Positions 35,205 to 52,852 of a stretch of DNA of 56,201 bases are shown one piece after another. The stretch spans positions 1 to 56,201 of the forward strand of contig JAFLJQ010000194.1 of assembly GCA_022712915.1 (NCBI GenBank), written 5' to 3'. The DNA comes from Gammaproteobacteria bacterium (GTDB lineage: Bacteria; Pseudomonadota; Gammaproteobacteria; UBA6429; Thiohalophilaceae). The translations under genes and the position numbers were made by a program. The notes beneath the pieces were generated by a model. It was not told the origin of the DNA, made no database searches, and saw only the letters and a list, made by a program, of their open reading frames with translations. Every line of letters begins with the position of its first letter. The first letter of the stretch is position 1.

Positions 35205-36173
35205 ATGGATCGAACCGAACGCTTTTATAAAATATGCCAACGCCTGAAAGCAGGGCGGTCAGTACCGCTAAAAGCATTTATGTCTGATCTGGAAATATCC
35301 CGGCCAACATTTTACCGTGACATCGAATATCTCAAAGATCGTTTCAACGCCCCCATCGAATATGACAAACACGCACATGGCTATCGCTTCGACCCTAAAG
35401 CCGAGCAATTTGAACTACCCGGCATCTGGTTCACAGCCAGTGAAGCCCACGCCATGTTATCCCTGCACCACCTGTTAAACGAAGTGCAACCCGGATTGCT
35501 TAAGCCTCTATTAGAACCCGTATATCAAAGACTAGAAAAAAGTTTTGACAAAAACAACACCGCCATAAAAGAAATGAATCGGCGTATTCGTATCCTGTCC
35601 ATGGCTCATCGTAAAGTTGAACCCAATTACTACGAACTCATCAGCCATGCCGTCCTCACGCGCAAACGACTCTTCATCCACTACTACAACCGCGCACGAG
35701 ACGATAAAACCGAACGTGAAATTTCACCGCAATGCCTGACGTATTACCGAGACAACTGGTATCTGGACAGTCACGACCACATGCGTAACCAACTGCGCAC
35801 CTTCTCCCTGGACTGCATACAATACGTACAGCTTGTGGATGCCCCCGCGCGCAACATCAAAGACCCAATTCTCGATGAAGAACTCGGCAGCAGCTACGGC
35901 ATCTTTTCCGGAAAAAGCACACAAACCGCCGTACTGCAATTCAACGCCTTCCGCGCCCGCTGGGTCGCCAGAGAACAATGGCACCCGCAACAACAAGGTG
36001 AATGGCAAGCCGATGGCACATACCAACTGCACATCCCCTATGCAGACGACAGAGAACTGCTCATGGACATCCTCAAATATGGTGCAGACGTTGAAGTACT
36101 CTCACCCAAAGCACTACGTGATCGCGTATATAAAAGCCTACAACAAGCTGTAAAAAAATATAAAAATAATTAA
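35205..36173 (+). CDS. WYL-domain transcriptional regulator
   Basis: 322 aa. The N-terminal winged helix (RFYKICQRLKAGRSVPLKAF, SRPTFYRDIEYLKDRF) is followed by the WYL fold: RKRLFIHYYNRARDDKTEREISPQCLTYYRDNWYLD, FSLDCIQYVQLVD, and a C-terminal WCX-like domain. WYL regulators sense ligands, often nucleic acid-like, and commonly control CRISPR and other defence genes. Its position at the edge of the CRISPR island fits such a role. Confidence 0.88.
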   Translation: MDRTERFYKICQRLKAGRSVPLKAFMSDLEISRPTFYRDIEYLKDRFNAPIEYDKHAHGYRFDPKAEQFELPGIWFTASEAHAMLSLHHLLNEVQPGLLKPLLEPVYQRLEKSFDKNNTAIKEMNRRIRILSMAHRKVEPNYYELISHAVLTRKRLFIHYYNRARDDKTEREISPQCLTYYRDNWYLDSHDHMRNQLRTFSLDCIQYVQLVDAPARNIKDPILDEELGSSYGIFSGKSTQTAVLQFNAFRARWVAREQWHPQQQGEWQADGTYQLHIPYADDRELLMDILKYGADVEVLSPKALRDRVYKSLQQAVKKYKNN

Positions 36174-36887: not shown

Positions 36888-37853
36888 ATGGAACAATTAA
36901 CGGATCTAAAGGCAATACTGCATTCCAAGCGGGCGAATATTTATTACCTGGAAATGTGCCGAGTCATGCAAAAGGATGGCCGAGTGTTATATCTGACTGA
37001 AGCCAAAAAAGAATATCAGTACTGGAACATCCCCATCGCCAATACAACTGTGATCTTGTTAGGCACAGGCACATCCATTACCCAGGCCGCCATGCGAATG
37101 CTGGCCAGTGCTGGCGTACTAGTGGGCTTTAGCGGCGGCGGCGCCACCCCCTTACTAGCCGCAACGGAAATTGAATGGCTAACACCGCAGAGTGAATATC
37201 GCCCTACGGAATATATTCAAGGCTGGATGTCCTTCTGGTTTGATGATGAAAAACGACTGGCGGCGGCCAAACAGCTACAACAAGCCCGTATCCAGTTTAT
37301 GCAAATCGTATGGGCAAAAGACCGCGACTTAAAAGCAGCAGGCTTTAATCTGCATGATGATGATATCGCCTCCGCACTAAGTAACACCGTTGCCAAAATC
37401 GAACAGGCACAAAAAGTAACCAACCTATTACAAATAGAAGCCGAGCTAACAAAACGCCTGTATAAAATAGCCGCCAAGCGAACAAAGCACGGTGACTTTG
37501 TTCGTGATAGAGAATCCGTCGATGTCGCCAATGATTTTCTCAACCATGGCAATTATTTAGCCTATGGCCTGGCCGCCTGCACACTCTGGGTTCTCGGCAT
37601 ACCCCATGGCTTCGCCGTCATGCATGGCAAAACCCGCCGAGGCGCACTCGTCTTCGATGTCGCCGATTTAATAAAAGACACACTGGTACTTCCCTGGGCC
37701 TTCATCTGTGCCAAAGAAAACGCCACCGAACAGGAATTTCGTCAGCAATGCCTACAAGCGTTTACCGACCATAAAGCACTGGATTTTATGTTTGACCAGG
37801 TAAAGACAATCGCATTAAAGTATCGAGAGACCAAAGCTGAGGTCACAGAATGA
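36888..37853 (+). CDS. cas1: Orphan type I-F Cas1 endonuclease/integrase
   Basis: 321 aa and unmistakably of the I-F subtype: ILHSKRANIYYLEMCRVMQK, YWNIPIANTTVILLGTGTSI, LTPQSEYRPTEYIQGW and IPHGFAVMHGKTRRGALVF. Metal ligands appear intact: E186, H246, D257, D260. Cas1 with Cas2 inserts new spacers. In type I-F it is normally followed at once by cas2-3; here only a 13-codon stub (MITRKRHQYDYYV) overlaps its stop, and no I-F cas2-3, cas8f or I-F repeat is present. It is either a relic of a lost I-F system or a retained accessory Cas1. Confidence 0.92.
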   Translation: MEQLTDLKAILHSKRANIYYLEMCRVMQKDGRVLYLTEAKKEYQYWNIPIANTTVILLGTGTSITQAAMRMLASAGVLVGFSGGGATPLLAATEIEWLTPQSEYRPTEYIQGWMSFWFDDEKRLAAAKQLQQARIQFMQIVWAKDRDLKAAGFNLHDDDIASALSNTVAKIEQAQKVTNLLQIEAELTKRLYKIAAKRTKHGDFVRDRESVDVANDFLNHGNYLAYGLAACTLWVLGIPHGFAVMHGKTRRGALVFDVADLIKDTLVLPWAFICAKENATEQEFRQQCLQAFTDHKALDFMFDQVKTIALKYRETKAEVTE

Positions 37854-38941: not shown

Positions 38942-39427
38942 ATGAAAACTGACATGACTTTATTCGAAGATTACCAGATTCGCCGTGTGTACGATGAAGA
39001 GGTCGAAATCTGGTGGTTTTCGGTGATTGATATCGTGCAGGTATTGACTCAGCAATCTGATTATAAAGCAGCCAGAAATTACTGGAAGGTATTGAAAAAC
39101 CGGTTGAATAAAGAAGGTAGTCAGTTGGTTACAAATTGTAACCAACTGAAATTACCCGCCGCAGATGGCAAAAAATATCTAACCGATGTTGCCACAGCAG
39201 AAACCTTGTTGCGTCTGGTGCAATCCGTCCCCAGCCCCAAGGCCGAGCCCATCAAACTTTGGTTAGCCAAGGTCGGTTATGAACGAATGCAGGAAATGGC
39301 CGATCCGGCCATGTCTCTTAATCGTGCCAGAGAAACCTGGCAAAAACATGGCCGTAGTGAAAAATGGATCCAGCAATGTGTGATACGTCTATTTGGAATA
39401 GCCGGGTTGTTTTTGAATGATGAATAA
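38942..39427 (+). pseudogene. Truncated BRO-N (phage antirepressor-like) gene
   Basis: Residues 1-145 match BRO-N family proteins, including RRVYDEEVEIWWFSVIDIV, LPAADGKKYLTDVA, SVPSPKAEPIKLWLAKVGYE and RARETWQKHGRSEKWIQQ. In intact members the chain continues for about 100 residues after WIQQ; here it switches to unrelated CVIRLFGIAGLFLNDE and stops 11 bp inside cas3. The 3' part was therefore lost at a junction within about 50 bp of the cas3 start. It begins 0 bp after the RhuM stop. Confidence 0.8.
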
Positions 39428-42176
39428 AATGCAACAACACATCCCGTTATATTTTAAATATTGGGGCAAGGCCAACAAGGAAGGGGAGCAATATCATTTG
39501 CTGCCGTATCATTGTTTGGATGTGGCGGCGGTGGGTCAGGTTCTGATGCACAGAATACCTAAACTGAAAAAACAATTGGCTCGTCATTTAGGTATTGATG
39601 AAACTGTATTTGTACGGTGGATGTTATTTTTACTGGCATTGCATGATTTAGGGAAATTCACAGATTCTTTTCAGAAACTGCGTAAAGATATATTGATGTT
39701 ATTACAAGAACGGGAGAGTAATGCAAGTGGTGGTGTTCGCCATGATATCTTGGGTTATGTCTTGTGGCGAGAGCATCTTCTGCCCTTCTTGCGTGAGTTG
39801 GGGGTATTGAGTGAAAAGAAGAGCCGTATTGTCTCGCCAGATGAAGCGGCACTGGATGTATGGATGTCTGCGGTGACGGGTCATCATGGTGTTCCGCCGG
39901 GGGGGTTCACTGGGTACTTGCCTGATTTTATGAATCAAGCTGATGACGTGAATGCTGTAAAACAATTTGTTGAAGATATATTTATTCTATTCATGGGGGA
40001 CGATATTGTCTTACCTGAAATTGATGAGGACAAGGTAGGTAATGCCTCATGGTGGATGGCCGGTTTTATCGTTCTGTGTGACTGGCTGGGTTCAAGTAGA
40101 AAGTCGGAAGATTTTCATAGTGAGATACAACCGCTGTCGAGTTATTGGAATGAGGCTGTTAAATGGGCAGACGATGTTGTAGAACAGAGTGGCCTAATTC
40201 CAGCGGAAGTAAGTTGCTGTTTTGATATAAAGGATTTTTTTGAAAAAGATATCCATATTGATCCCACCCCGCTACAAACGGCAGCTTCAAAATGTGCAAT
40301 AGGTAAAGGGCCGCAAATATTCATACTGGAAGATGTGACGGGGTCAGGCAAGACAGAGGCGGCGGTTTTATTATTACACCAGCTTATGGCGCATGATCTT
40401 GCCGAGAGTGCTTATTTTGCTTTGCCCACCATGGCAACGTCTAACGGTATGTACCGGCGTATGGGAAAGGTTTATCGAAAACTTTATGCTCCTGAGAGCA
40501 ATCCATCTTGTGTGTTGGCTCATAGTGCCAGAGAGATGTCTGATGAGTTTCGTAAATCCATAACAGTATACGTGGATGAACGTCAGCAGAATTATGGTGA
40601 TGGAACCATGCCCGCCGCCGCGCACTGTAGTGCATGGTTAGCGGACAATCGAAAAAAGGCGTTACTAGCAGATATCGGTGTAGGGACAATTGATCAAGCT
40701 CTGCTCAGTATCCTGCCATCCAAACATCAGTCCCTGCGTTTGCTTGGACTATTGGGTAAGGTGTTGGTTATCGACGAAATACACAGTGCAGATGAATATC
40801 AAAATGTCCTCATTTGTCACTTACTCAAGGCACACGCTTCGACAGGCGGCAGTGCCATCTTGCTTTCTGCAACCTTGCCGCAGAATCAACGGCAAGGTTT
40901 TCTCAATGCCTTTGCAGCCGGTTTAGATAAGCCCTCACCTATCATGGAGAAGATCAATAACACGGATTATCCGCTACTGACGCACTTTTGTGCCGAGGTA
41001 TTTCGTGAAGAGGTATTGCAAACACGAGAAAGCGTGAAGCGAACCGTCAAGATCCAATTTATACACCATGAGACAGAACTGCATCAGTTAATTAAAGCGT
41101 CATCAGAACAAGGGCAGTGTGTTTGTTGGATACGTAATACCATAAAAGATACTCGTGCCACCTATGCAGCACTTAAAGGGGACATTCCACAAGATAAATT
41201 GGATTTGTTTCATGCCCGTTATGCCATGCAGGATCGTTTGAACATTGAAAATCGAGTGTTGGATCGGTTTGGGCCTGATAGCGGAGCGGAAGACAGAAAG
41301 GGGAAAGTGTTGATCAGTAGCCCCGTAACAGAGCAATCACTCGACCTATGTTTTGATATTTTAATTACCGATTTGGCATCTATCGATTTGATCATACAAC
41401 GCGCGGGCAGATTACAAAGACACACTCGTGATCTTAATGGCAATCGGATTGAAGGTGATGATCAACGCGGTGGAGCAGTCCTTTATATCTATGCCCCACA
41501 GTGGAATGATAACCCTCAAGCTGATTGGATTAAATCCAGCATGAAAGGCACGGCGGCTATCTATGAAGCGGGCCAGCTCTGGCTCACCCAAAAACGACTG
41601 CGCCAGGCCAATCAACAATTCAAAATGCCCGGTGATGCCCGTTCACTCATCGAAGCGGTGTATGGTGAGCAGGCCATGGGTGAAATACCGGATGGTCTGC
41701 TGGCTCAGGTGAATAAGGCGGATGGTGATCATTATGCAATTGCCAGCCATGCCAAGGCGAATGCGCTGAAGTTAGAGGAAGGTTATCGAAAGGATGGTAA
41801 TTGGTGGGATGAGGACAGCATGCCTACTCGTCATATAGAAAAGGAGAGCATTAGTGTTTATCTGGCCAAATGGGAACAGGGTCGTTTGCAACCCTGGATT
41901 AATAAAGGGGATTTTCACTGGGCGCGCAGTGCCGTGAATATGATGAAAGATAAGGTGACGGCAGAAGGCGAACACGAGTCGATACCGGCAGTAGAAATAG
42001 CCAAAGTGAAGGGAACCATGCCCGCCAAAGGCAAGTGGGGTGTGTTATTGCCCCTGATCGATATGGGTGAGGGGCTGTGGCGAGGAACGGTAAAAAATAA
42101 GGATAATCAATTGGTTAAGTTGTATTACAATAATGTTCGGGGATTGATGGAAGCGGAAGAGGTGCAGGAACCATGA
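39417..42176 (+). CDS. cas3: CRISPR-associated helicase/nuclease Cas3 (type I-E)
   Basis: 919 aa. N-terminal HD nuclease with H32 in PYHCLDVAAV and H76-D77 in LALHDLGKF; SF2 helicase with Walker A VTGSGKTEAAV (about residue 305), DEIH box VIDEIHSAD (about 451), SAT motif ILLSATLP and motif VI region IIQRAGRLQRHT. Recruited by Cascade to degrade the non-target strand. Its upstream region has been replaced by the RhuM/BRO insertion, so its promoter is not obvious. Ten bp after its stop lies a degenerate CRISPR repeat. Confidence 0.96.
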   Translation: MMNKMQQHIPLYFKYWGKANKEGEQYHLLPYHCLDVAAVGQVLMHRIPKLKKQLARHLGIDETVFVRWMLFLLALHDLGKFTDSFQKLRKDILMLLQERESNASGGVRHDILGYVLWREHLLPFLRELGVLSEKKSRIVSPDEAALDVWMSAVTGHHGVPPGGFTGYLPDFMNQADDVNAVKQFVEDIFILFMGDDIVLPEIDEDKVGNASWWMAGFIVLCDWLGSSRKSEDFHSEIQPLSSYWNEAVKWADDVVEQSGLIPAEVSCCFDIKDFFEKDIHIDPTPLQTAASKCAIGKGPQIFILEDVTGSGKTEAAVLLLHQLMAHDLAESAYFALPTMATSNGMYRRMGKVYRKLYAPESNPSCVLAHSAREMSDEFRKSITVYVDERQQNYGDGTMPAAAHCSAWLADNRKKALLADIGVGTIDQALLSILPSKHQSLRLLGLLGKVLVIDEIHSADEYQNVLICHLLKAHASTGGSAILLSATLPQNQRQGFLNAFAAGLDKPSPIMEKINNTDYPLLTHFCAEVFREEVLQTRESVKRTVKIQFIHHETELHQLIKASSEQGQCVCWIRNTIKDTRATYAALKGDIPQDKLDLFHARYAMQDRLNIENRVLDRFGPDSGAEDRKGKVLISSPVTEQSLDLCFDILITDLASIDLIIQRAGRLQRHTRDLNGNRIEGDDQRGGAVLYIYAPQWNDNPQADWIKSSMKGTAAIYEAGQLWLTQKRLRQANQQFKMPGDARSLIEAVYGEQAMGEIPDGLLAQVNKADGDHYAIASHAKANALKLEEGYRKDGNWWDEDSMPTRHIEKESISVYLAKWEQGRLQPWINKGDFHWARSAVNMMKDKVTAEGEHESIPAVEIAKVKGTMPAKGKWGVLLPLIDMGEGLWRGTVKNKDNQLVKLYYNNVRGLMEAEEVQEP

Positions 42177-42186
42177 GATCCCCGCA

Positions 42187-42264
42187 CCTTCCATCCCCAC
42201 GCGTGTGGGGAACACTCTGTCTATATCCATATACACGGTTCATCCCCATGCACGTGGGGAACAC
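42187..42264 (-). ncRNA. Degenerate two-repeat mini-CRISPR: predicted crRNA-like guide (CreA/CreR-like)
   Basis: Read on the minus strand. First repeat 42264-42236 differs from the array consensus at only 2 of 29 bases and keeps the exact 5' handle ATGAACCG. A 20-bp spacer follows (42235-42216, TGTATATGGATATAGACAGA). The second repeat (42215-42187) keeps a perfect 6-bp Cas6e hairpin (CCCCAC-ACGC-GTGGGG) but has a decayed 3' end. The parts needed for a functional guide are thus kept and the rest has drifted. A -10-like TAATAT (minus strand, 42280-42275) lies just upstream, so transcription would begin close to the first repeat. The spacer matches the site at 42318-42337. Confidence 0.75.
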
Positions 42265-42314
42265 TCAACGCGGAATATTAGCATTTATGTTTCAGTACAG
42301 AGAATTATTTTCTT

Positions 42315-42339
42315 AAGTGTATATGGATTTAGATATAAG
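42315..42339 (+). promoter_or_regulatory. Predicted Cascade target overlapping a promoter
   Basis: AAG at 42315-42317 (canonical type I-E PAM) is followed by 42318-42337, which matches the mini-CRISPR spacer at positions 1-11 and at 17 of 20 overall; mismatches are at 12, 17 and 19. A -10-like TATAAG lies at 42334-42339, with a weak -35 (TTCTTA, 42310-42315) 18 bp upstream. Cascade bound here would cover the promoter and silence the downstream transcript. Confidence 0.7.
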
Positions 42340-42400
42340 TTTTTGTTTCATGCTACTTGTATTATTCTTCGGTGGTTATTTTTAATTATAGAGGTGAGTA

Positions 42401-42562
42401 ATGGACAGATTAGAGATCGACTACAAATTTTTCAGAGTAAATCCACAAATTTTATTTGAGGAAATGCAGAAAACAGGTATGGACGGCTGCATTTATTACT
42501 GCGGACATGAATATGTGGTGAAATCGAACTTACAAGAAGCTGCAAATGATCCGGCGTATTAA
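42401..42562 (+). CDS. Small ORF downstream of the Cascade-target promoter; candidate toxin
   Basis: 53 codons, ATG preceded by GAGGTGA at good spacing, a near-perfect ribosome site. The product starts MDRLEIDYKFFRVNPQIL, is soluble and acidic, has two Cys (DGCIYYCGHEY), and matches no family I know. Codons 3 and 12 are AGA. A leader ORF of 11 codons (42350-42385, MLLVLFFGGYF) lies between the promoter and this gene. If the locus is a CRISPR-guarded toxin module, the toxin is either this protein, the leader peptide or the RNA itself. Confidence 0.5.
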   Translation: MDRLEIDYKFFRVNPQILFEEMQKTGMDGCIYYCGHEYVVKSNLQEAANDPAY

Positions 42563-42592
42563 AGTTGAAAAAGATACTCCTGATTAATGTCT

Positions 42593-42680
42593 GGCTACCA
42601 CGGTCTTTTGTGGGAACCCATTTGATACGCTAGAGATATGCATTCCCATACAGAATGGGGGGGATGAGGACATGTTAGGC
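42593..42680. repeat. Hairpins between the small ORF and the cas8e remnant
   Basis: CCACGGTCTTTTGTGG (42598-42613) is the counterpart of the hairpin 5' of cas8e at 43806-43831. It is followed by a REP-like palindrome (CATTCCCATACAGAATGGG, about 42641-42659), related to one at 53241-53275. A third stem, TTAGGCCC/GGGCCTAA, spans 42675-42708. Confidence 0.5.
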
Positions 42681-42724
42681 CCATGTACTTGCTGTTTCAG
42701 GGGCCTAATGATAAGCAGGTTGAT

Positions 42725-42812
42725 GAAAGGGACATAACGCAAAGGAGGATCTATTTTGAACCTGATCTCAGACGCATGAATAACGGTGTGCGGGGTTATA
42801 TTGCCCCGTAAC
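42725..42812 (+). pseudogene. Degraded duplicate of the cas8e leader and first codons
   Basis: Aligns by eye with 43829-43910: ATGAAAGGGACATAAC then AAGGAGGATCTAT(T)TTGAAC, versus the same arrangement before real cas8e. The copy reads TTG-AAC-CTG-ATC-TCA-GAC-GCA and then TGA, where cas8e continues with Trp-Ile-Pro; homology fades near ATATTGCC. It shows that an older cas8e start lay here and that the 1-kb hydrolase/partner cassette arrived with or by a duplication or recombination. Confidence 0.75.
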
Positions 42813-42857
42813 AGTTTGTCCTATTTGATTGTTAATAACATATAAGGAAATACGAAC

Positions 42858-43370
42858 ATGTTGAAAGAACCACCACAGATTTTACCGAGTTACTTAAATA
42901 AACACATCAGTTATTTTTGTGCTGCAACATTGGCTAAAGACGATTTGCAAAACCACTGTGCCCATTTCGTTTCTCATGTCATGCAATATGAGGTTGAAGG
43001 GTCGGCTACATGTAAAACATTTACGCTTAAAGATAAAAAAACCATAGAACATGGTGCAAGCATCAGGGTTAATGAAGTATTTAATAAATTGCAAAAAACG
43101 GGGGAATGGGAATCCAGACCAGAACACCTACGCGCTTGTTTAATGTTTGTGACGATATCAAGTAATATGCGTAACCGTGGAAATCATCTTGTAATGGGTG
43201 ATCGAAAAAAGAAACATATTGGAATCCTGTATAAGGACAAGATATGGAATTACAGTAATTCGAATGATAAAGTGGTTGCGGATAGCGTGGCGATTTTTAT
43301 TAATAAATTTAAACATTATTATATTACAGCAGGGAATACAGTAAATTTTTATTATGGAGGCTTCTCATGA
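42858..43370 (+). CDS. Putative papain-fold (NlpC/P60- or CHAP-like) hydrolase inside the cas locus
   Basis: 170 aa, AAGGAAAT ribosome site. A Cys in NHCAHFVSHVM (C34) and a later His in KKKHIGILYKDKIWNYSN (H120) are placed like the Cys/His pair of NlpC/P60-type peptidoglycan amidases. There is no signal peptide. It overlaps the next gene by 4 bp (ATGA). Not a known cas gene. The pairing with a secreted partner resembles T6SS amidase effector/immunity pairs. Family assignment is tentative. Confidence 0.5.
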   Translation: MLKEPPQILPSYLNKHISYFCAATLAKDDLQNHCAHFVSHVMQYEVEGSATCKTFTLKDKKTIEHGASIRVNEVFNKLQKTGEWESRPEHLRACLMFVTISSNMRNRGNHLVMGDRKKKHIGILYKDKIWNYSNSNDKVVADSVAIFINKFKHYYITAGNTVNFYYGGFS

Positions 43371-43795
43371 AGCCGTTGTTTGTTATGTTGCTGTTTTGTC
43401 TGGTTAATATGTCTAGCGCTACGGCAGAAAATAAAACGCCAATAGTTGAGGCTTTTTTAAGCCTAATTAACCATAAAGATGTTTTATTGTTGGAATCAAG
43501 TCATTGCAAGGGTTTGTTAAATGAAACGCCAGATAAAACTATAGGGGATCTGCTTTCAAGTTTTTTGGCCATGCCATCTGAAAATGAGAAAAATGTACAC
43601 GTTATTAATTCTAGTTGTGAGTCTGCACAATATGAGAATGCCAAAAAGGTTGTTGATGTGTGGGATTGTCGTTTGACTGTGACAGAAAAAGTTGTTACGC
43701 CAGGGGGGGCTAAGGAAGACATCATTGCGAGCATGATGTTTGCAATAATAAAAATTGATAATGAATTGATAAAAAACTCTTTGCGTTGTTTTTAA
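43367..43795 (+). CDS. Secreted Cys-containing protein, possible immunity partner
   Basis: 142 aa starting MKPLFVMLLFCLVNMSSATA, a signal peptide cleaved near ATA-EN. The mature domain has four Cys (SSHCKGLL, NSSCESA, VWDCRLT, SLRCF), fitting two periplasmic disulphides. Translationally coupled to the putative hydrolase upstream. This mirrors the amidase/lipoprotein pair at 1448-2490 in layout, and an immunity function is inferred from that layout. No family recognised. Confidence 0.55.
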   Translation: MKPLFVMLLFCLVNMSSATAENKTPIVEAFLSLINHKDVLLLESSHCKGLLNETPDKTIGDLLSSFLAMPSENEKNVHVINSSCESAQYENAKKVVDVWDCRLTVTEKVVTPGGAKEDIIASMMFAIIKIDNELIKNSLRCF

Positions 43796-43805
43796 TTTAT
43801 TATCG

Positions 43806-43831
43806 GGTTCCCACGGTCATTTGTGGGAATG
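43806..43831 (+). promoter_or_regulatory. Hairpin in the cas8e 5' leader
   Basis: TTCCCAC-GGTCATTT-GTGGGAA followed by TGAAAG, about 30 bp before the cas8e start. It resembles both the CRISPR repeat stem and a dispersed REP-like palindrome seen elsewhere in the window. It could influence cas8e translation or be a Cas6e-binding decoy; neither is shown. Confidence 0.45.
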
Positions 43832-43861
43832 AAAGAGATATAACATTAAGGAGGATCTATC

Positions 43862-45469
43862 TTGAACTTGATCACCGACCCATGGATACCGGTGCAACGT
43901 AAAAGCGGGGCATTGGACTACATTGCCGTTTGGCAAATAACGGAGCCGGACAACCCGGTCATTAAGCTAGCTGCCCCACGACATGACTTTGATGCCGCCA
44001 TCGTACAGTTTTTAATTGGATTGTTACAAACCACGGCAACACCCGCCGATAATCGCCAATGGGGGGCATGGCTGAGCAATCCTCCCTCACCGGATGAGCT
44101 GCGCTCGAAGTTTAAAGCGTATGAAGATGTCTTTATGTTGGATGGCGAAGGGCCACGATTCATGCAGGATAGCGAACCCTTTGAGGGTGAAGAAAAGCCC
44201 ATCAGTGGCCTGTTGATCGAAGCGCCGGGTAATCGTACTTCGACCCTATTTCTGGATCATTTTATAAAAGAGGGGTCTTATAACGGCCTATGTCATTGTT
44301 GCACTGCTACGGCCTTATTTGCCCTGCAAACCAATGCACCCAGTGGCGGTGTCGGTCATCGAACTTCACTAAGAGGGGGCGGCCCCTTAACAACTCTGTT
44401 GATACCCGATACTCAGGCAAATGCGAAACACAGCGATACCTTGCCGGATACCTTATGGACAACATTATGGCTCAATGTTCTGGAGCAAAAATCGGTAAAT
44501 TGTTTTAGTGGTTCTATAGAGCTGAATAAACATAAAGATATTTTTCCCTGGATGGCGGACACACGAACCAGTGAGGCCAAGACAGGAAGTGCAACGACAC
44601 CAGAAAACGCCCATCCCTTTCAAATGTATTGGGCCATGCCTCGGCGCATTCGCATTGACTGGAATGCAGAGCAGCAGGGTGTTTGTGATTTATGTGGCGC
44701 AGAAAACCAATCTTTAGTGGTGCACTATATCACCAAAAACTACGGTGTTAATTATACCGGCGCATGGCAGCACCCCCTTAGCCCACACTATCAAGACAAA
44801 ACAAGTGGAGAGCGTTTGCCCATGCATGCGCAACCGGCGGGCTTGGTCTATCGTTATTGGCTGGCCTGGGCGCAGGGTGGGAGGCAGTATCTGGCGGCAA
44901 AGGTTATTGATGAATATAAACCGGAAAAAGGCCGACGCTTGGAAAATGAGCAACTCAGGCTTTGGGTGTTCGGTTATGACATGGACAACATGAAGGCGCG
45001 TTGTTGGTATGAAAAACAGTATCCATTGATCGTCATAGAAGACCAACAGCAGCGTAAAATTTTTTGTATTAGAGCAGAGGAAATGCTCGGTCTGGCGACA
45101 CAAATGTCAGGCTTTGTGCAGAGTTGTGTGAAGGATGCCTGGTTTGATCGCCCTGCTGATGCCCGGGGCGATACCAGTTTTATCAAAGTGGCCTTTTTTG
45201 AGCAGACTGAACCGGTCTTTTTAGAACTGCTCAATGATTTGAAAGATCGAGTTATGACGAATGAAGGGCGAACCGTCTTGCAAAATTGGCATGCACGATT
45301 GACCCATCACGCCTTAAAATTGTTTGACCATTGGGCGGCCCGTGGTGATATCACTCCATCAGACCCAAGGCGGATTGCCGAAGCACATCGCAAACTGCGT
45401 AACCTCATCTATGGCAAAAAATTATTACAGTCCCTGGGGATTGAAACTAAAAAGGAGAAAGCAGCATGA
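43862..45469 (+). CDS. cas8e: Cascade large subunit Cas8e (Cse1/CasA)
   Basis: 535 aa starting at TTG with a perfect AGGAGG site. Family features: MNLITDPWIPVQRKSG at the N-terminus, NAPSGGVGHRTSLRGGGPLTTLL, a zinc-like CDLCGAENQ pair, and a C-terminal four-helix bundle. Recognises the PAM and nucleates target unwinding. Its stop overlaps cas11 by 4 bp. Confidence 0.96.
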   Translation: MNLITDPWIPVQRKSGALDYIAVWQITEPDNPVIKLAAPRHDFDAAIVQFLIGLLQTTATPADNRQWGAWLSNPPSPDELRSKFKAYEDVFMLDGEGPRFMQDSEPFEGEEKPISGLLIEAPGNRTSTLFLDHFIKEGSYNGLCHCCTATALFALQTNAPSGGVGHRTSLRGGGPLTTLLIPDTQANAKHSDTLPDTLWTTLWLNVLEQKSVNCFSGSIELNKHKDIFPWMADTRTSEAKTGSATTPENAHPFQMYWAMPRRIRIDWNAEQQGVCDLCGAENQSLVVHYITKNYGVNYTGAWQHPLSPHYQDKTSGERLPMHAQPAGLVYRYWLAWAQGGRQYLAAKVIDEYKPEKGRRLENEQLRLWVFGYDMDNMKARCWYEKQYPLIVIEDQQQRKIFCIRAEEMLGLATQMSGFVQSCVKDAWFDRPADARGDTSFIKVAFFEQTEPVFLELLNDLKDRVMTNEGRTVLQNWHARLTHHALKLFDHWAARGDITPSDPRRIAEAHRKLRNLIYGKKLLQSLGIETKKEKAA

Positions 45470-46002
45470 GTGTGGAATTTACCCATGATAGTGAGCTGGG
45501 CATGGCTTTGGCCGAGTGGTGGCTGGGTCTTAAAGATAATAGCGCCGCACGTGCTGAACTGCGGCGTTGCAACAGTGTTGCTGAGGTTGTGATGACACCT
45601 GCCTTCCAGCGTTTTTGTCAGCGCAAGTTGCGTTCCTTAATGCAAGACACTCAAATGTGGGAAGATCGCATGGCCGCTGTTGTCGGTTTGTTGTCTCATC
45701 TGCGACACGATGCCGAATCAACGGTGCTAGGAAAGAGTGCTCGACCAGTGGAAGCCTTTGCCGAACAAATGGCCGATTTGGTGAGTGCAGATCGCCCCCT
45801 GGTGAGTGAGCTTCGTTTTCGTCGCTTGCTGCAAAATGAACGTGCAGACCTTTATGAGTCGATGACTCGTATTATTCGCATGTTAAAAGGGGGCGCAAAC
45901 CTGTATGGCCTGTCGTATTCCATTTTCCATTGGGGAGATAACGTGAAAAAGCGTTGGGCCTATGCATATTTTCCAAAAGTACCAAGTAAAAAGTCAGCGT
46001 AA
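45466..46002 (+). CDS. cas11: Cascade small subunit Cas11 (Cse2/CasB)
   Basis: 178 aa, all helical: LAEWWLGLKDNSAARAELRRCNSVAEVVMTPAF is the typical N-terminal half; FRRLLQNERADLYESMTRIIRML the C-terminal half. A Cse2 dimer binds the belly of Cascade and stabilises the R-loop. Translationally coupled to cas8e. Confidence 0.95.
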   Translation: MSVEFTHDSELGMALAEWWLGLKDNSAARAELRRCNSVAEVVMTPAFQRFCQRKLRSLMQDTQMWEDRMAAVVGLLSHLRHDAESTVLGKSARPVEAFAEQMADLVSADRPLVSELRFRRLLQNERADLYESMTRIIRMLKGGANLYGLSYSIFHWGDNVKKRWAYAYFPKVPSKKSA

Positions 46003-46067
46003 TGAGCTGTCTACCTTGTTTTAAAAAAAATTAACTGAAATTTTCATATTGATTAAGGAGAACAATA

Positions 46068-47171
46068 ATGGGACATTTTATTCAATTACATCTATTAACT
46101 TCATATCCACCGGCCAACCTAAATCGGGACGACCTGGGACGACCCAAGACCGCCATGATGGGCGGTGTACCTCGACTGAGGGTGTCATCACAAAGTCTAA
46201 AGCGCGCATGGCGAACATCAGAAATATTTGAAACCGCCCTAAAGGGGCATGTGGGTACACGCACCAAGGCGATGGGTGTTAAGGTTTATGAAAGCCTGCT
46301 TGAAAAAGGCGTGACAGACAAAAAAGCGCTGGAGTGGGCAAAGACCATTGCGGCTGTTTTTGGCAAACCTAAGTCGTTGAGCAAAAGTGAAGAAGCAAAA
46401 CTGAAAGATCCTGAAATCTCCGATAAAGAGAAAGAAGCACTAACCAACAAGCCGCTAGAAATCGAACAGTTGGCGCACTTCAGTCCGGAAGAAGAGGCCG
46501 CTATTAATGCCTTAGAAGAAACACTGGCCTCTCGGGGTGATGGCCTGCAAGCAGATGAACTTAATTTGTTACGTGCAAAACACACCGGTGCAGACATTGC
46601 TCTGTTTGGGCGTATGTTGGCATCCAGTCCGGCCTATAACACTGAGGCCGCTGCACAAGTCGCACATGCTATTAGTGTTCACAAAGTTGCGGTTGAAGAT
46701 GATTTCTTTACTGCGGTGGATGACTTGAACAATGGTGCAGAGGACATGGGGGCCGCCCATATGGGAGATATCGAATTTGGTGCAGCACTGTTTTATCAAT
46801 ATATTTGCATTGATAAGGACCTGCTAACAAAAACGTTGGCAGATACCAAATTGGTCAAAGATACCATTATGGCCATGATTGAAACCTCAGCCACTGTTGC
46901 GCCGACCGGAAAGCAAAATAGTTTTGCATCACGTGCCAGGGCATCCTACATCATGTGTGAAGTGGGCAGCCAGCAACCACGTTCACTCTCTGTTGCCTTT
47001 CTGGAGCCTATTCAAGGTAATTCTATGCTGACTGATTCAATTGCCAAATTGGAAGAAACAAAAAAGAACATGGATGCCGTGTATGGCCCATGCTCTGATT
47101 ACAGTGAGGTCATGAGTGCCGTGACGGGTACGAGCAGTCTGCAAAATATTATGATAGCCGCTGTGGAGTAA
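46068..47171 (+). CDS. cas7: Cascade backbone subunit Cas7e (Cse4/CasC)
   Basis: 367 aa with AAGGAG ribosome site. RDDLGRPKTAMMGG, VPRLRVSSQSLKRAWRTS and EDMGAAHMGDIEFGAALFYQY are typical. Several copies polymerise along the guide, one per 6 nt, flipping out each sixth base. Confidence 0.96.
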   Translation: MGHFIQLHLLTSYPPANLNRDDLGRPKTAMMGGVPRLRVSSQSLKRAWRTSEIFETALKGHVGTRTKAMGVKVYESLLEKGVTDKKALEWAKTIAAVFGKPKSLSKSEEAKLKDPEISDKEKEALTNKPLEIEQLAHFSPEEEAAINALEETLASRGDGLQADELNLLRAKHTGADIALFGRMLASSPAYNTEAAAQVAHAISVHKVAVEDDFFTAVDDLNNGAEDMGAAHMGDIEFGAALFYQYICIDKDLLTKTLADTKLVKDTIMAMIETSATVAPTGKQNSFASRARASYIMCEVGSQQPRSLSVAFLEPIQGNSMLTDSIAKLEETKKNMDAVYGPCSDYSEVMSAVTGTSSLQNIMIAAVE

Positions 47172-47176
47172 GCCAA

Positions 47177-47923
47177 ATGACGTCATATCTCATGGTACGA
47201 CTTTACGGCCCCATGGCCTCGTGGGGTGATATCGCGGTTGGTGAGCAACGCTCCACACAGGGGCATCCGAGCAAGTCAGCCGTATTTGGGTTGTTGGCGG
47301 CGGCGCTTGGAATCAAACGTGATGAAGAGGAAAAACAGTTAAGCTTGATGAATGGCTACAGCATGGCGGTAAGAGTCGATTCAGAAGGGGCTCTGCTGCG
47401 TGATTATCACACGATACAAGTACCGCCACCGCAACGTGGGCGGCGCTACTATACGCGCAAGGATGAAATGAGTGTTCCAAAATATATGTTGAATACACTC
47501 TTGTCACAGCGTGATTATCGCGTGGATGCTCATTACACCGTGGCAATATTTGCAAAAGAGGCGCCATATTCTCTGGCGGAACTGGAAGCAGCCTTGAAAA
47601 CACCGCGTTATACACTTTATCTGGGCCGTAAATCATGCCCGCTGGCCTTTCCATTACAACCGCAATTGATTGATGCTGAAAATCTCCAGGTAGCATTTGA
47701 AACATTTGTTGTGGATAACAAATTTATTCGACAAGAAAAATTGACCACCACCAATGTGGAAAAAGTTAAAGCCTACTATTGGGAAGATGTCACTCTTGAA
47801 GAAACGGGTCTGCCTGATAGCGGTGTTTATCTTCAGAATGTGCGACGAGATCAGTCAAGCAGTCGGCGGCGGTGGCAGTTTGTTAATCGCATGGAACATT
47901 TCTTAATGGTCAAGGAGGGATAA
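47177..47923 (+). CDS. cas5: Cascade subunit Cas5e (CasD)
   Basis: 248 aa. RAMP-fold start YLMVRLYGPMASWGDIAVGE, then RSTQGHPSKSAVFGLLAAALGI. Binds the 5' handle of the crRNA. Five bp after cas7. Confidence 0.95.
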   Translation: MTSYLMVRLYGPMASWGDIAVGEQRSTQGHPSKSAVFGLLAAALGIKRDEEEKQLSLMNGYSMAVRVDSEGALLRDYHTIQVPPPQRGRRYYTRKDEMSVPKYMLNTLLSQRDYRVDAHYTVAIFAKEAPYSLAELEAALKTPRYTLYLGRKSCPLAFPLQPQLIDAENLQVAFETFVVDNKFIRQEKLTTTNVEKVKAYYWEDVTLEETGLPDSGVYLQNVRRDQSSSRRRWQFVNRMEHFLMVKEG

Positions 47924-47927
47924 CATT

Positions 47928-48611
47928 ATGAGCCATTTTAGTCGCATCATCCTGGATCCAAATAATTATCGCGCAAAAAAATTACTGCAAAATATTTCAC
48001 AGAATACTTACCAAGAGCATCAGAGTCTATGGAATATGTTTCCTGATGATCCCGATGCTAAGCGTGATTTTATTTATCGATGTGAACAACGACATCTTTC
48101 GCGTGTTTATTATGTGGTTTCCAGGCGTAAGCCGCAGCAACAAGACGCTTGGGATGTTGAATCAAAACCGTATCAGCCAAAAATATTAAGCCAAGAATCA
48201 CTGGCATTCACTTTGCGCGTAAACCCGATCATTAAGCGTAAAGATGACAAAGGGAAAGCTCAACGGCATGATGTTGTCATGAATACCAAAACACAGTTGG
48301 GTTACAGCCAGTTGCCGCCGACAAAACGCCCCCCGGTGGCGGAGCTGATACAAACGTCCGGTATTAAATGGCTTCAAGACCGCAAGGAAAAATGTGGTTT
48401 CGACTTTGATGAGCAAGCCGTTATCATTGAAAGCTATGAGCAGAATCAGGCCTATAAACAAGGTAATAAAGGTGCTATTTCCTATAGTACCATGGATTTT
48501 TCAGGCGTATTACGAGTGACAGACCCTGAGAAATTTACCGAGACCTTGTTAAACGGCATCGGCCCTGCCAAAGCCTTTGGCTGTGGTTTATTGTTGGTTC
48601 GCAGGCTTTAA
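47928..48611 (+). CDS. cas6e: crRNA endonuclease Cas6e (CasE)
   Basis: 227 aa, two RAMP folds; the C-terminal Gly-rich loop is GIGPAKAFGCGLLLVRRL. Cuts at the base of the repeat hairpin and stays bound to the 3' handle. It would be expected to process both the main array and the mini-CRISPR at 42187-42264, whose second repeat keeps an intact stem. Confidence 0.95.
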   Translation: MSHFSRIILDPNNYRAKKLLQNISQNTYQEHQSLWNMFPDDPDAKRDFIYRCEQRHLSRVYYVVSRRKPQQQDAWDVESKPYQPKILSQESLAFTLRVNPIIKRKDDKGKAQRHDVVMNTKTQLGYSQLPPTKRPPVAELIQTSGIKWLQDRKEKCGFDFDEQAVIIESYEQNQAYKQGNKGAISYSTMDFSGVLRVTDPEKFTETLLNGIGPAKAFGCGLLLVRRL

Positions 48612-48669: not shown

Positions 48670-49590
48670 ATGGCTTTCATACCCCTTAAACCCATCCCAA
48701 TGAAGGATCGTGTTTCAATGCTCTTTGTTGAATACGGTCAGGTCGATGTCAAAGATGGTGCCTTTGTTGTTATCGACAAGACGGGTATCCGTACTCACAT
48801 CCCGGTTGGATCGGTTGCCTGCATAATGCTGGAGCCGGGTACGCGTGTATCACATGCCGCTATTAAATTGGCGGCACAGGTAGGGACGTTATTGGTCTGG
48901 GTGGGTGAAGCCGGGGTGCGAGTGTATGCCTCGGGACAACCGGGTGGGGCAAGGGCGGATCGTTTGCTCTATCAAGCTAGTCTTGCTCTGGATGATACCT
49001 TGCGTTTGAAAGTGGTGCGCAAAATGTATGAGTTTCGCTTTGGCGAAGAACCACCGCAGCGGCGTAGCGTAGAACAACTGCGTGGTATTGAAGGGGCGCG
49101 GGTGAAAAAACTTTATCAGTTATTGGCGCAACGTCATGGCGTAACATGGCAAGGTCGCCATTATGATCCAAAGGATTGGAATAAAGGCGACATTGCCAAC
49201 CAGTGTTTAAGTGCCGCCACCGCTTGTCTGTATGGCATCACCGAAGCGGCCATACTTGCCGCAGGTTATGCACCGGCCGTTGGCTTTATTCATACAGGCA
49301 AACCCCTTTCATTTGTCTACGATATTGCCGACCTGTTTAAATTTGATACCGTTGTACCCGTGGCCTTCAAAATTGCAGCCCGATCACCATCAAAGCCGGA
49401 TAAAGAAGTACGTCGTGCCTGCCGGGATATCTTTCGTGAAACACGCCTATTGAAGAAAATCATTCCTTCAATAGAAGAAGTTCTTTCATCCGGAGGCATC
49501 GAACCACCCAAAGCGCCTGAAGAATCTGTTCCGCCCGCCATACCCAATCCTGAATCAATCGGTGATGAAGGCCACCGCAGTGGCGGTTAA
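48670..49590 (+). CDS. cas1: Cas1 (type I-E)
   Basis: 306 aa. Residues align one-to-one with E. coli Cas1 catalytic positions: E141 (GIEGARVKKLY), H208 (GFIHTGKPLSF), D218 and D221 (VYDIADLFKFD). DWNKGDIANQCLSAATACLYG is typical. Integrates new spacers with Cas2. A longer than usual Pro/Gly-rich tail follows residue 280. Confidence 0.97.
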   Translation: MAFIPLKPIPMKDRVSMLFVEYGQVDVKDGAFVVIDKTGIRTHIPVGSVACIMLEPGTRVSHAAIKLAAQVGTLLVWVGEAGVRVYASGQPGGARADRLLYQASLALDDTLRLKVVRKMYEFRFGEEPPQRRSVEQLRGIEGARVKKLYQLLAQRHGVTWQGRHYDPKDWNKGDIANQCLSAATACLYGITEAAILAAGYAPAVGFIHTGKPLSFVYDIADLFKFDTVVPVAFKIAARSPSKPDKEVRRACRDIFRETRLLKKIIPSIEEVLSSGGIEPPKAPEESVPPAIPNPESIGDEGHRSGG

Positions 49591-49905
<315 letters not shown>

Positions 49906-50017: not shown

Positions 50018-52852
50018 GTGTTCCCCACATGCGTGGGGATGAACCGGCTAACCTGATTCATGATGTGCTCAATGTGATGTGTTCCCCACATGCGTGGGGA
50101 TGAACCGAATATCAACGCGCCATGGCTGCATAATGGCAAGTGTTCCCCACATGCGTGGGGATGAACCGATACTCAAAATCAGGATGGAAATACGCTTCTG
50201 GTGTTCCCCACATGCGTGGGGATGAACCGGAGTTTTTATGTATAAATATATTGTTTTATTAGTGTTCCCCACATGCGTGGGGATGAACCGCCAGCACACT
50301 TGCATGTGAATACAGCACTATTGTGTTCCCCACATGCGTGGGGATGAACCGGTTTCACATGAAACGTTAAACAGGAGAATTTAGTGTTCCCCACATGCGT
50401 GGGGATGAACCGAGTTGGATGGAGACCTGCACGAATGGGGGGATGTGTTCCCCACATGCGTGGGGATGAACCGAACTGATTTAAATAAAACCAGCTCTTG
50501 CACAGGTGTTCCCCACATGCGTGGGGATGAACCGCAGAGTATAAATCTCAAGCATACAAACTATGTGTGTTCCCCACATGCGTGGGGATGAACCGACTAT
50601 AATAATAGCAATTAGCAGTAAGTTGTTGTGTTCCCCACATGCGTGGGGATGAACCGAATCGGGGATTGTTATAGCAAAACCTCCCAAAGTGTTCCCCACA
50701 TGCGTGGGGATGAACCGACACTCAAAATCAGGATGGAAATACGCTTCTGGTGTTCCCCACATGCGTGGGGATGAACCGAGGTAAACTGAAATGAGCCAAG
50801 TAGCCGAAATGTGTTCCCCACATGCGTGGGGATGAACCGCTCTTGATTTAGAAATCATCGGAAATATTAAGGTGTTCCCCACATGCGTGGGGATGAACCG
50901 AATGGATAGAGGTGATTAATTACAATGCGCCAGTGTTCCCCACATGCGTGGGGATGAACCGCGGCGACATTCAAGCATCTTGCTTACAGTATTGTGTTCC
51001 CCACATGCGTGGGGATGAACCGGGCTGGATGTTGAAATAACAGGGACAGAGAAAGTGTTCCCCACATGCGTGGGGATGAACCGATGAATATTATCCTCTA
51101 ATGATCTGATGATATGTGTTCCCCACATGCGTGGGGATGAACCGACACCCGCTCAGACGAAATAGGGATTGTTGTTGTGTTCCCCACATGCGTGGGGATG
51201 AACCGTGAGAGTAATACTCTTGGCTAAATTAACGGTCGTGTTCCCCACATGCGTGGGGATGAACCGGTCGGTGTTGATAATGAGCCAGACCAGTCAGGGT
51301 GTTCCCCACATGCGTGGGGATGAACCGTAACTGTTCCAGATACATTTTTTTCAGAAATAGTGTTCCCCACATGCGTGGGGATGAACCGGCAATGGGTTTA
51401 TTGACGAGCGGCATCTCTGGGTGTTCCCCACATGCGTGGGGATGAACCGTTAGTTGTGCGGTACGCTGTAGCCGTATAAACGTGTTCCCCACATGCGTGG
51501 GGATGAACCGAGCTGGCTAGAGTTGGGTTATCTGACGTCAGAGTGTTCCCCACATGCGTGGGGATGAACCGAGGTTATCGACCCGTGCGCCGATTCCTAC
51601 AGTGTGTTCCCCACATGCGTGGGGATGAACCGAGTTGCAGGAAGTGGATCGCCTGTTTTTGATTGTGTTCCCCACATGCGTGGGGATGAACCGCAATGGA
51701 TGTTATTATTTCTGACGCTCTGCATGTGTTCCCCACATGCGTGGGGATGAACCGGGAATTGGGTAACCCGGAAAATCAGGGTGATCGTGTTCCCCACATG
51801 CGTGGGGATGAACCGGGCGCGCAGGCACACTCTTAAGTGAGAGTAATGTGTTCCCCACATGCGTGGGGATGAACCGAACTATGTGACGGATATCCGTTTC
51901 TTCAAAAGGTGTTCCCCACATGCGTGGGGATGAACCGATACTCAAAATCAGGATGGAAATACGCTTCTGGTGTTCCCCACATGCGTGGGGATGAACCGTA
52001 CCTGCCACACCCATCGAGAATGGATCTGTGGTGTTCCCCACATGCGTGGGGATGAACCGTTTCGATATTATCGGCTAATGACGGGCACGTCGTGTTCCCC
52101 ACATGCGTGGGGATGAACCGCTTCTACGCTATTTTACAAACTGAAGGGATTTGTGTTCCCCACATGCGTGGGGATGAACCGCAAGCCCGTAGCGTCAAGA
52201 AGGACGGGAGGGCGTGTTCCCCACATGCGTGGGGATGAACCGATCTGATCCGGGTAATAACCTTTTGCCGAATAGTGTTCCCCACATGCGTGGGGATGAA
52301 CCGATAATTTAGAGGTGTGGGGCCGGGCGCGTATGGTGTTCCCCACATGCGTGGGGATGAACCGGGGTGACGCAAAAAGACGACATGGATGGTATGGTGT
52401 TCCCCACATGCGTGGGGATGAACCGGGGATAGTGAGCAGGTAGGGACGTATAGGTTGGTGTTCCCCACATGCGTGGGGATGAACCGCAGGCGATCTAATG
52501 CTGAGTCAGCCGTATCCAGTGTTCCCCACATGCGTGGGGATGAACCGTAGCCCATCTTCCCGAAAGTCCGATATTTTTAGTGTTCCCCACATACGTGGGG
52601 ATGAACCGGGTTAGCAAAAAAAGGCAGCAGTTCGACACCAGTGTTCCCCACATGCGTGGGGATGAACCGCCCAGAAATAGTAGGGACAACATCACCCAGT
52701 TGTGTTCCCCACATGCGTGGGGATGAACCGAGGGGGTGGGTTGGTCGGGGTTGTTTTGATCAGTGTTCCCCACATGCGTGGGGATGAACCGCGTTCAATC
52801 TGTTCTTGGGCCTTAGCCTGTGCGTGTTCCCCACATGCGTGGGGATGAACCG
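50018..52852 (+). CRISPR. Type I-E CRISPR array, 47 repeats and 46 spacers
   Basis: 29-bp repeat GTGTTCCCCAC-ATGC-GTGGGGATGAACCG with a 6-bp stem; period 61 bp throughout, so spacers are 32 bp. Repeats are essentially identical; the one change I noticed is G to A in the loop of repeat 43 (52580-52608). The last repeat is intact, so no decayed trailer end is seen. Spacers 3, 12 and 32 (50169, 50718, 51938) are the same sequence, with one base different in spacer 12. Confidence 0.98.

What the first reader, a model, noticed from the sequence alone, without database searches (positions are those of the whole stretch)
42187..42339. A mini-CRISPR between cas3 and cas8e encodes a guide that matches a promoter 53 bp away behind an AAG PAM
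The minus-strand spacer (42235-42216) and the plus-strand site 42318-42337 agree at positions 1-11 without a gap (a complete seed) and at 17 of 20 positions. The first mismatch is at position 12, one of the every-sixth positions that Cascade flips out. The three bases before the site are AAG, the canonical type I-E PAM. Such a match at such a distance with the right PAM and orientation is unlikely by chance. Known CRISPR-regulated toxin-antitoxins (CreTA, first described in haloarchaeal type I-B) and Cascade-autorepressing guides (CreR) share this layout. I infer that this is a type I-E version.
Basis: partly seen in the sequence, partly recalled or inferred. Interest (0 to 1): 0.96.

Follow-up and report, generated by a model that had tools for sequence, protein, structure and literature searches.

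The report
Mini-CRISPR guide repressing its own operon
A tiny two-repeat CRISPR beside the cas genes most likely makes a guide RNA that sends the CRISPR complex to silence its own operon, a control circuit already known in outline; related systems carry unrelated guides that each match their own nearby site, often just ahead of a tiny uncharacterised gene.

Summary
A minus-strand mini-array (R1 42264-42236, 20-nt spacer 42235-42216, R2 42215-42187) encodes a guide matching 42318-42337 at positions 1-11 and 17 of 20, behind AAG. AAG plus this seed (position 6 free) occurs once in the 4.24 Mb genome. Of 101 type I-E loci examined, 34 have such a pair upstream of cas8e. In 30 non-redundant pairs every guide fits its own target, versus 4 of 870 cross pairings; matching falls to chance at positions 6 and 12 and fades after about 16. 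The closest guide-bearing relative, L092, keeps seed and PAM. This is a CreR-type Cascade-autorepressing guide, a kind already published for type I-E (as cited in PMC13131331): a new member, not a new system. No consensus promoter was found at the window's target; transcription is untested. New to me: a Shine-Dalgarno-led mini-ORF starts 59-87 nt after the target in 15 of 30 loci (1.5 expected), 9 membrane-peptide-like (0.05 expected). The window's is ORF53, 42401-42562. Whether such ORFs are toxins (CreTA-like) is open.

The parts
39417..42176 (+). cas3 (type I-E), ends just before the mini-array
   Evidence: Pfam Cas3_HD 6e-42, PADLOC Cas3e 4e-194
42187..42215 (-). R2, downstream repeat of the mini-CRISPR: hairpin intact, 3' handle decayed
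   Evidence: 25/29 identity to main-array repeat, first 21 nt 20/21, last 8 nt 5/8
42216..42235 (-). 20-nt spacer (guide)
42236..42264 (-). R1, upstream repeat: 8-nt crRNA 5' handle ATGAACCG intact
   Evidence: 27/29 identity to main-array repeat, last 8 nt 8/8
42315..42317 (+). AAG PAM
   Evidence: in the comparative set AAG was required for the call, except L011 with AAA
42318..42337 (+). Guide target (protospacer strand), 17/20, positions 1-11 and 13-16 matched
   Evidence: AAG plus seed (position 6 free) unique in the genome
42401..42562 (+). ORF53, mini-ORF with Shine-Dalgarno, starting 64 nt after the target; 39% identical in alignment to the mini-ORF at the same place in L019
   Evidence: tblastn E 6e-4; no significant Pfam, NCBIfam, PADLOC or PHROGs family
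42723..42788 (+). Decayed duplicate of the cas8e 5' end (fossil of an earlier cas8e start)
   Evidence: 82% identical to 43829-43894; 42730-42789 also matches the cas8e start of L092 at 75%
42858..43370 (+). ORF170, cargo gene of unknown family with CAHFVSH and KH(I/V)GI motifs shared with its relatives; hydrolase-like is inference
   Evidence: relatives L116, L117, three plasmid records; no significant family match
43367..43795 (+). ORF142, overlaps ORF170; signal-peptide-like start (by eye); an exported-looking ORF also follows the ORF170 relative in L116 and L117
43862..45469 (+). cas8e
   Evidence: CRISPR_Cse1 3e-111
45466..48611 (+). cas11e, cas7e, cas5e, cas6e
   Evidence: PADLOC matches
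48670..49905 (+). cas1e and cas2e (by position and recalled resemblance; not searched)
   Evidence: ORFs 48670-49590 and 49594-49905
50018..52852 (+). Main CRISPR array, 46 exact repeats, spacing 61 nt in 44 of 45 intervals (32-nt spacers)

Best explanation
The mini-array is a CreR-type gene. It is transcribed on the minus strand, cut by Cas6e at both repeats, and the crRNA-like product (handle, 20-nt guide, hairpin) loads into Cascade. That Cascade binds 42318-42337 behind AAG through positions 1-11 and 13-16, too short a match to call in Cas3 for cleavage, and blocks transcription rightward into ORF53 and the Cascade operon. When ordinary crRNAs or anti-CRISPRs tie up Cascade, repression lifts and more Cascade is made. 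Shown here: the anatomy, the guide-target fit, its conservation in an orthologue, and guide-target matching across unrelated guides. Inferred: transcription, processing, binding, repression, the position of the promoter, and the feedback logic.
For: Anatomy and uniqueness of the match. R1 keeps the handle and R2 the hairpin, the degeneration pattern described for two-repeat creA genes (PMC8501985, sections 14 and 19). 34 of 101 type I-E loci have a pair; 30 of 30 non-redundant guides fit their own target (by selection), 4 of 870 cross pairs do; 28 of 30 seeds are distinct; matches of 30 by position: 1-5 29-30, 6 = 7, 7-11 26-30, 12 = 9, 13-15 24-28, 16 = 18, 17 = 14, 18-20 7-10; positions 6 and 12-20 were not used for selection. 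Ortholog L092: the stretch 42120-42247 (end of cas3, R2, spacer, handle end of R1) is 77% identical, the 11-nt seed and the PAM are the same, and the only target change within positions 1-11 is at position 6. The cas3-cas8e gap is at least 163 nt in 32 of 32 measurable guide-bearing loci and under 150 nt in 53 of 65 measurable others. Predicted -35 boxes lie at +21 to +24 (10) or +31 to +33 (6) from the target's left end in 22 loci with minus-strand targets. Spacer lengths are 20-22 nt (13) or 31-34 nt (21), none between. In type I-B, 20-24-bp spacers repressed a target gene and no new spacers were acquired (PMC10989794 passages).
Against: No sigma-70-like promoter at the window's own target (p=0.32; the best-scoring one lay at +84). 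No RNA or binding data. In type I-B a 20-bp spacer repressed much less well than 21-24 bp (44% of mRNA left against 9-13%), and the window's guide is 20 nt. The nearest Cas8e relative, L010 (70%), has no mini-array and about 70 nt between cas3 and cas8e. The trait needs at least 23 changes on the Cas8e tree, so it is often gained or lost. The -35 peak at +21 is partly built in, because the PAM complement CTT supplies its first two T, and 6 of 22 best promoters fall elsewhere. 6 of 21 perfect handles lack an AAG target (one of them is L011 with AAA). cas8e lies 1.5 kb from the target in the window.
Confidence: 0.85

Rival explanations
1. CreTA reading: the guide is an antitoxin RNA and the primary target is the mini-ORF (ORF53 here), a toxin released when Cascade is lost or inhibited, so the module addicts the cell to Cascade; cas8e control is a by-product.
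For: Same layout as the Acinetobacter I-F creTA: a gap between cas3 and the next cas gene, two repeat-like sequences, PAM-flanked partial match, mini-ORF divergent from creA and downstream of the target (PMC10097628 section 6). Mini-ORFs at +59 to +87 in 15 of 30 loci, 1.46 expected; 9 membrane-peptide-like, 0.05 expected. The Methylomonas mini-ORF is under purifying selection, pS 0.68-0.74 against pN 0.04-0.07 in the two comparisons with L073.
Against: In several relatives the mini-ORF overlaps or abuts cas8e, which fits a co-transcribed accessory gene. 15 of 30 guide-bearing loci, including ortholog L092, have no mini-ORF by the stated criteria. ORF53 is not hydrophobic and has no known family. 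No toxicity test.
Confidence: 0.25
2. Leftover of a decayed CRISPR array with a chance or self-derived spacer and no present function.
For: R2's handle is decayed; the guide is short; the array has one spacer; the nearest Cas8e relative L010 lacks the array.
Against: The decay spares what a processed guide needs. Seed and target are conserved between the window and L092 while the rest of the gap diverged. Mismatches concentrate at positions 6 and 12 across 30 loci.
Confidence: 0.03
3. The guide controls mainly the minus-strand transcript, that is its own promoter, or both divergent promoters, rather than cas8e.
For: The target lies 53 nt upstream of the mini-array on its transcribed strand; no promoter could be placed on either strand in the window.
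Against: In relatives, predicted promoters on the cas8e-facing strand sit at recurrent offsets from the target, and ORFs follow on that side; the minus-strand side was not scored in the same way.
Confidence: 0.12

Closest known systems
CreR, cas-regulating RNA of type I-B, I-E and V-A (Liu et al. 2023 Cell Host Microbe; paper not held; seen only as cited and described in passages of PMC13131331, PMC12737573 and PMC12948488)
   Same: Mini-CRISPR by the cas operon; partial complementarity behind a PAM; predicted autorepression of the operon that makes Cascade.
   Different: Here three ORFs (ORF53 and a two-gene cargo) lie between the target and cas8e; promoter not identified; no experiment. I could not read whether the published type I-E examples have mini-ORFs.
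CreTA (haloarchaeal type I-B, PMC8501985; Acinetobacter type I-F, PMC10097628)
   Same: Two degenerate repeats, R1 keeping the handle and R2 the hairpin; match at 1-5 and 7-11; divergent mini-ORF after the target; location in the gap after cas3 as in Acinetobacter.
   Different: AAG PAM and type I-E repeats. The mini-ORFs here have 30-61 codons and some form families, while the CreT examples read here are toxic RNAs with very short ORFs (six codons; 33 bp). Toxicity unknown.
CrePA (CRISPR-repressed protein toxin; passages in PMC12737573, and PMC13131331)
   Same: Would match if ORF53 or the cargo were a Cascade-repressed protein toxin.
   Different: No evidence of toxicity here; expression of the published toxin is said to halt cell division.
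Canonical type I-E CRISPR array
   Same: Repeat sequence and handle.
   Different: One 20-nt spacer instead of 32-nt spacers; opposite strand to the main array; one repeat decayed; chromosomal target in the same locus.

Membership tests
CreR | Ectopic mini-CRISPR next to the cas operon | tested here: met
CreR | Partial complementarity (seed 1-5, 7-11) to a PAM-flanked site in the same locus | tested here: met
CreR | The target site lies in a cas promoter | tested here: inconclusive
   No promoter found in the window; recurrent -35 offsets in relatives
CreR | Generally not coupled to a toxin gene (PMC12737573) | tested here: inconclusive
   ORF53 follows the target; function unknown
CreR | Processed RNA and Cascade-dependent repression | not testable with these tools
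   needs RNA and reporter data
CreTA | Two repeats, R1 keeping the 5' handle and R2 the hairpin | tested here: met
   rule read
CreTA | Divergent mini-ORF downstream of the target | tested here: met
   ORF53 at +64
CreTA | The mini-ORF transcript or product is toxic and held off by Cascade | not testable with these tools
   needs expression tests
Canonical CRISPR array | Regular 32-nt spacers between uniform repeats | tested here: not met
   20-nt spacer, R2 handle decayed

The most novel reading that the evidence does not exclude
Type I-E operons under CreR control often begin with a dedicated micropeptide gene (two families of single-membrane-span peptides, a basic amphipathic one, and the soluble ORF53 family of the window and L019), and some also hold a toxin-antitoxin or effector-immunity-like pair (HicBA in Methylomonas; ORF170/ORF142 here). 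The circuit would then be an operon-embedded protein CreTA: one Cascade-repressed promoter makes both Cascade and a peptide that harms the cell when Cascade is lost or blocked.
Probability: 0.25. Interest if true: 0.82.

Novelty: new member of a known kind. Interest (0 to 1): 0.55.

Why it matters
It gives a natural example, and a comparative set of 34 loci, of a CRISPR complex apparently regulating its own operon in type I-E, with the every-sixth-base signature and a 16-17-nt limit of pairing read directly from evolution. It also exposes mini-ORFs at the head of these operons that can be tested for toxicity or for a role with Cascade, and two discrete guide lengths (about 20 and about 32 nt, twelve apart) that suggest Cascade of two sizes.

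Tried and rejected
Strict hairpin detector: 20 of 32 minus-strand candidates had AAG targets against 0 of 11 plus-strand ones, but its threshold missed the window itself (a mismatched sixth stem pair in R1), so it was not used for counts. Consensus promoter scan of the window: none. DNA match in plasmids: none. ORF170 in viral contigs: 27 pattern matches, none a relative; against solved structures by sequence the best E was 0.013 (myomesin), taken as chance; its fold without an alignment was useless, pLDDT 36.6, so no fold search was run. In the two plasmid records opened, the ORF170 relative is the start of a 490-residue protein, so the two-gene pair was not shown there. Mini-ORF families elsewhere: A2 in 369 genomes, 4 weak matches; A1, own plus 1 weak partial match; sensitivity for such short proteins is low.

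Error and correction: genome-search loci on minus strands are not turned. therefore read the wrong end of ten loci (L092, L097, L098, L099, L101, L105, L106, L109, L112, L114). They were redone, and the final counts come from those; searches are cited only for the window or for loci that were read correctly. Rows dropped or changed: L067 (call inside cas3) dropped from the 34; L011 added by hand with PAM AAA; duplicates L090, L091, L093, L095 and the fragment L110 left out; L081, L096, L062, L073 left out of non-redundant counts; the cas8e starts of L096 and L103 moved by hand; L096, L103, L108 too short for the tree. The 80 loci are the best 80 of 327 relatives, so '34 of 101' is not a census. 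The cas3 end was taken as the last open frame of at least 200 codons before cas8e, not checked gene by gene.

A laxer listing also showed ORFs in L058 and L065.

Literature on the mini-ORFs: searches gave nothing relevant by title and abstract start; Liu et al. 2023 was not held, so absence from print is not shown.

Full report
What is there. Between cas3 (ends 42176) and cas8e (starts 43862) of a type I-E system lies a two-repeat CRISPR on the minus strand: R1 42264-42236, a 20-nt spacer 42235-42216, R2 42215-42187. The main array, 46 exact repeats, 44 of 45 spacings 61 nt, lies at 50018-52852 and reads on the plus strand. R1 keeps the 8-nt crRNA handle exactly (8 of 8); R2 keeps the hairpin part (20 of 21) but not the handle (5 of 8). 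This is the pattern described for two-repeat creA genes (PMC8501985, sections 14 and 19 read). The guide matches plus 42318-42337 at positions 1-11 and at 17 of 20, behind AAG. The pattern AAG plus seed with position 6 free occurs once in the 4,236,486-base genome.

Is it more than chance? I fetched 80 type I-E loci with the window's Cas8e (the best 80 of 327 relatives) and 20 further non-duplicate loci from a 369-genome sample of the class (duplicates checked). With the window that makes 101. In up to 1000 nt upstream of cas8e (for the window 42161-42860), minus-strand 8-mers identical to the handle are followed by a guide with an AAG-flanked seed match (at least 9 of 10 at positions 1-5 and 7-11) in 15 of 21 cases; 7/8 handles in 12 of 74; 6/8 in 7 of 572. 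The background at handle match 5 or less is 153 of 93,885, and plus-strand handles of 6 or more give 0 of 679. In all, 34 of 101 loci carry a pair, counting L011 (PAM AAA, added by hand) and dropping L067 (inside cas3).

Co-variation. Among 30 non-redundant pairs, 28 seeds are distinct, yet 30 of 30 guides fit their own target and only 4 of 870 cross pairings do (own fit is by selection, the cross count is the control). Positions not used for selection carry the signal: of 30, position 6 matches in 7, position 12 in 9, positions 13, 14, 15 in 28, 27, 24, position 16 in 18, position 17 in 14, and 18-20 in 10, 8, 7. This is the every-sixth-base signature (recalled for Cascade) with pairing ending at about 16-17 nt. 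In the window position 6 happens to match. In the orthologous locus L092 (Cas8e 65% identical) the stretch matching window 42120-42247 (end of cas3, R2, spacer, handle end of R1) is 77% identical, the 11-nt guide seed is unchanged, and the target reads AAG TGTATGTGGATTT, changed within positions 1-11 only at position 6; the rest of the gap has diverged.

What it controls. In 22 non-redundant loci with minus-strand targets, the best-scoring sigma-70-like promoter on the cas8e-facing strand has its -35 box at +21 to +24 from the target's left end in 10 and at +31 to +33 in 6; 6 lie elsewhere. The first group is partly favoured because the PAM complement supplies two T; the second is not. In 8 loci with plus-strand targets, as in the window, the offsets are -13, -9, -8, +22, +27, +29, +30 and, for the window, +84. 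The window itself gave no acceptable promoter (0; p=0.32), so the promoter there is inferred from the relatives and from ORF53 starting 64 nt after the target. Guide-bearing loci have a gap between cas3 and cas8e of at least 163 nt in 32 of 32 measurable cases; 53 of 65 measurable others have less than 150 nt; 4 loci could not be measured. The trait is scattered on the Cas8e tree of 98 rows: at least 23 changes, 19 forced by well-supported branches, shuffled mean 27.9, 13 of 500 shuffles as low. The nearest Cas8e relative, L010, lacks the mini-array.

History of the window's locus. 42723-42788 is an 82% copy of 43829-43894, the start of cas8e, and 42730-42789 also matches the cas8e start of L092 at 75%. 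So cas8e probably once began there, about 420 nt after the target, much as in L019 (417 nt). Two genes now lie between: ORF170 and ORF142. ORF170 has relatives in another genome (L116) and elsewhere in the window's genome (L117, with internal stops), each followed by an exported-looking ORF, and in three plasmid records; in the two opened it is the start of a longer protein. A hydrolase/immunity pair is my inference from shared Cys and His motifs and signal-peptide-like starts; no family matched significantly.

Mini-ORFs. They include two membrane-peptide families (alignments), an amphipathic type (L023, L057), and the ORF53 type, 39% identical in alignment between the window and L019 (tblastn E 6e-4). 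In Methylomonas pS is 0.68-0.74 and pN 0.04-0.07 in the two comparisons with L073, and 0.15 against 0.04 between L053 and L062, so it is very likely a translated gene; between mini-ORF and cas8e these genomes also carry HicB-like and HicA genes. In several loci the mini-ORF overlaps or abuts cas8e. The other 15 of 30 loci, L092 included, have none by these criteria.

Guide length. The 34 guides are 20-22 nt (13) or 31-34 nt (21), none between. The twelve-base step equals two Cas7 footprints (recalled). In type I-B, spacers of 20-24 bp repressed a target gene and gave no primed adaptation, though 20 bp repressed less (44% of mRNA left) than 21-24 bp (9-13%) (passages of PMC10989794). That fits a repression-only guide in the window, perhaps a mild one.

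What is known. CreR guides that autorepress type I-B, I-E and V-A are published (Liu et al. 2023, not held; seen as described in PMC13131331, one passage; CreR in general also in PMC12737573, passages, and PMC12948488, passages). The Acinetobacter I-F CreTA has the same layout after cas3 (PMC10097628 section 6). Thus the finding is a new member of a known kind. Whether ORF53 makes it CreTA-like cannot be told from sequence. My literature searches aimed at the mini-ORFs showed nothing relevant by title and abstract start, but the key paper could not be read.

Noticed in passing
window 42858-43795: Two overlapping genes, ORF170 with shared Cys/His motifs and ORF142 with a signal-peptide-like start, lie between the guide target and cas8e; similar neighbours elsewhere in the same genome (L117, with internal stops) and in L116.
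   Followed up: partly
L053, L062, L073, between target and cas8e: In Methylomonas a membrane mini-ORF, a HicB-like gene and a HicA toxin gene lie between the guide target and cas8e (Pfam run on L062 for HicB, on L053 and L062 for HicA).
   Followed up: partly
window 36888-37853: A type I-F-like cas1 (NCBIfam Cas1f 1e-145, PADLOC Cas1fv 5e-183) upstream of the type I-E operon, followed by RhuM-family and Bro-N genes and preceded by a WYL-domain regulator at 35205-36173; other I-F genes were not searched for.
   Followed up: no
34 guide loci: Guide lengths are bimodal, 20-22 or 31-34 nt, with none between.
   Followed up: partly
window 43797-43829 and 42584-42616: A hairpin-bearing stretch (TTCCCAC...GTGGGAA in the first) directly upstream of cas8e and, 82% alike, upstream of the fossil cas8e start; function unknown, possibly an old repeat or a processing site.
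   Followed up: no
L086 and L064, upstream of cas8e: Loci not counted as guide-bearing that have a handle-like repeat and an AAG target with 8 of 10 seed matches; 34 of 101 may be an undercount.
   Followed up: no
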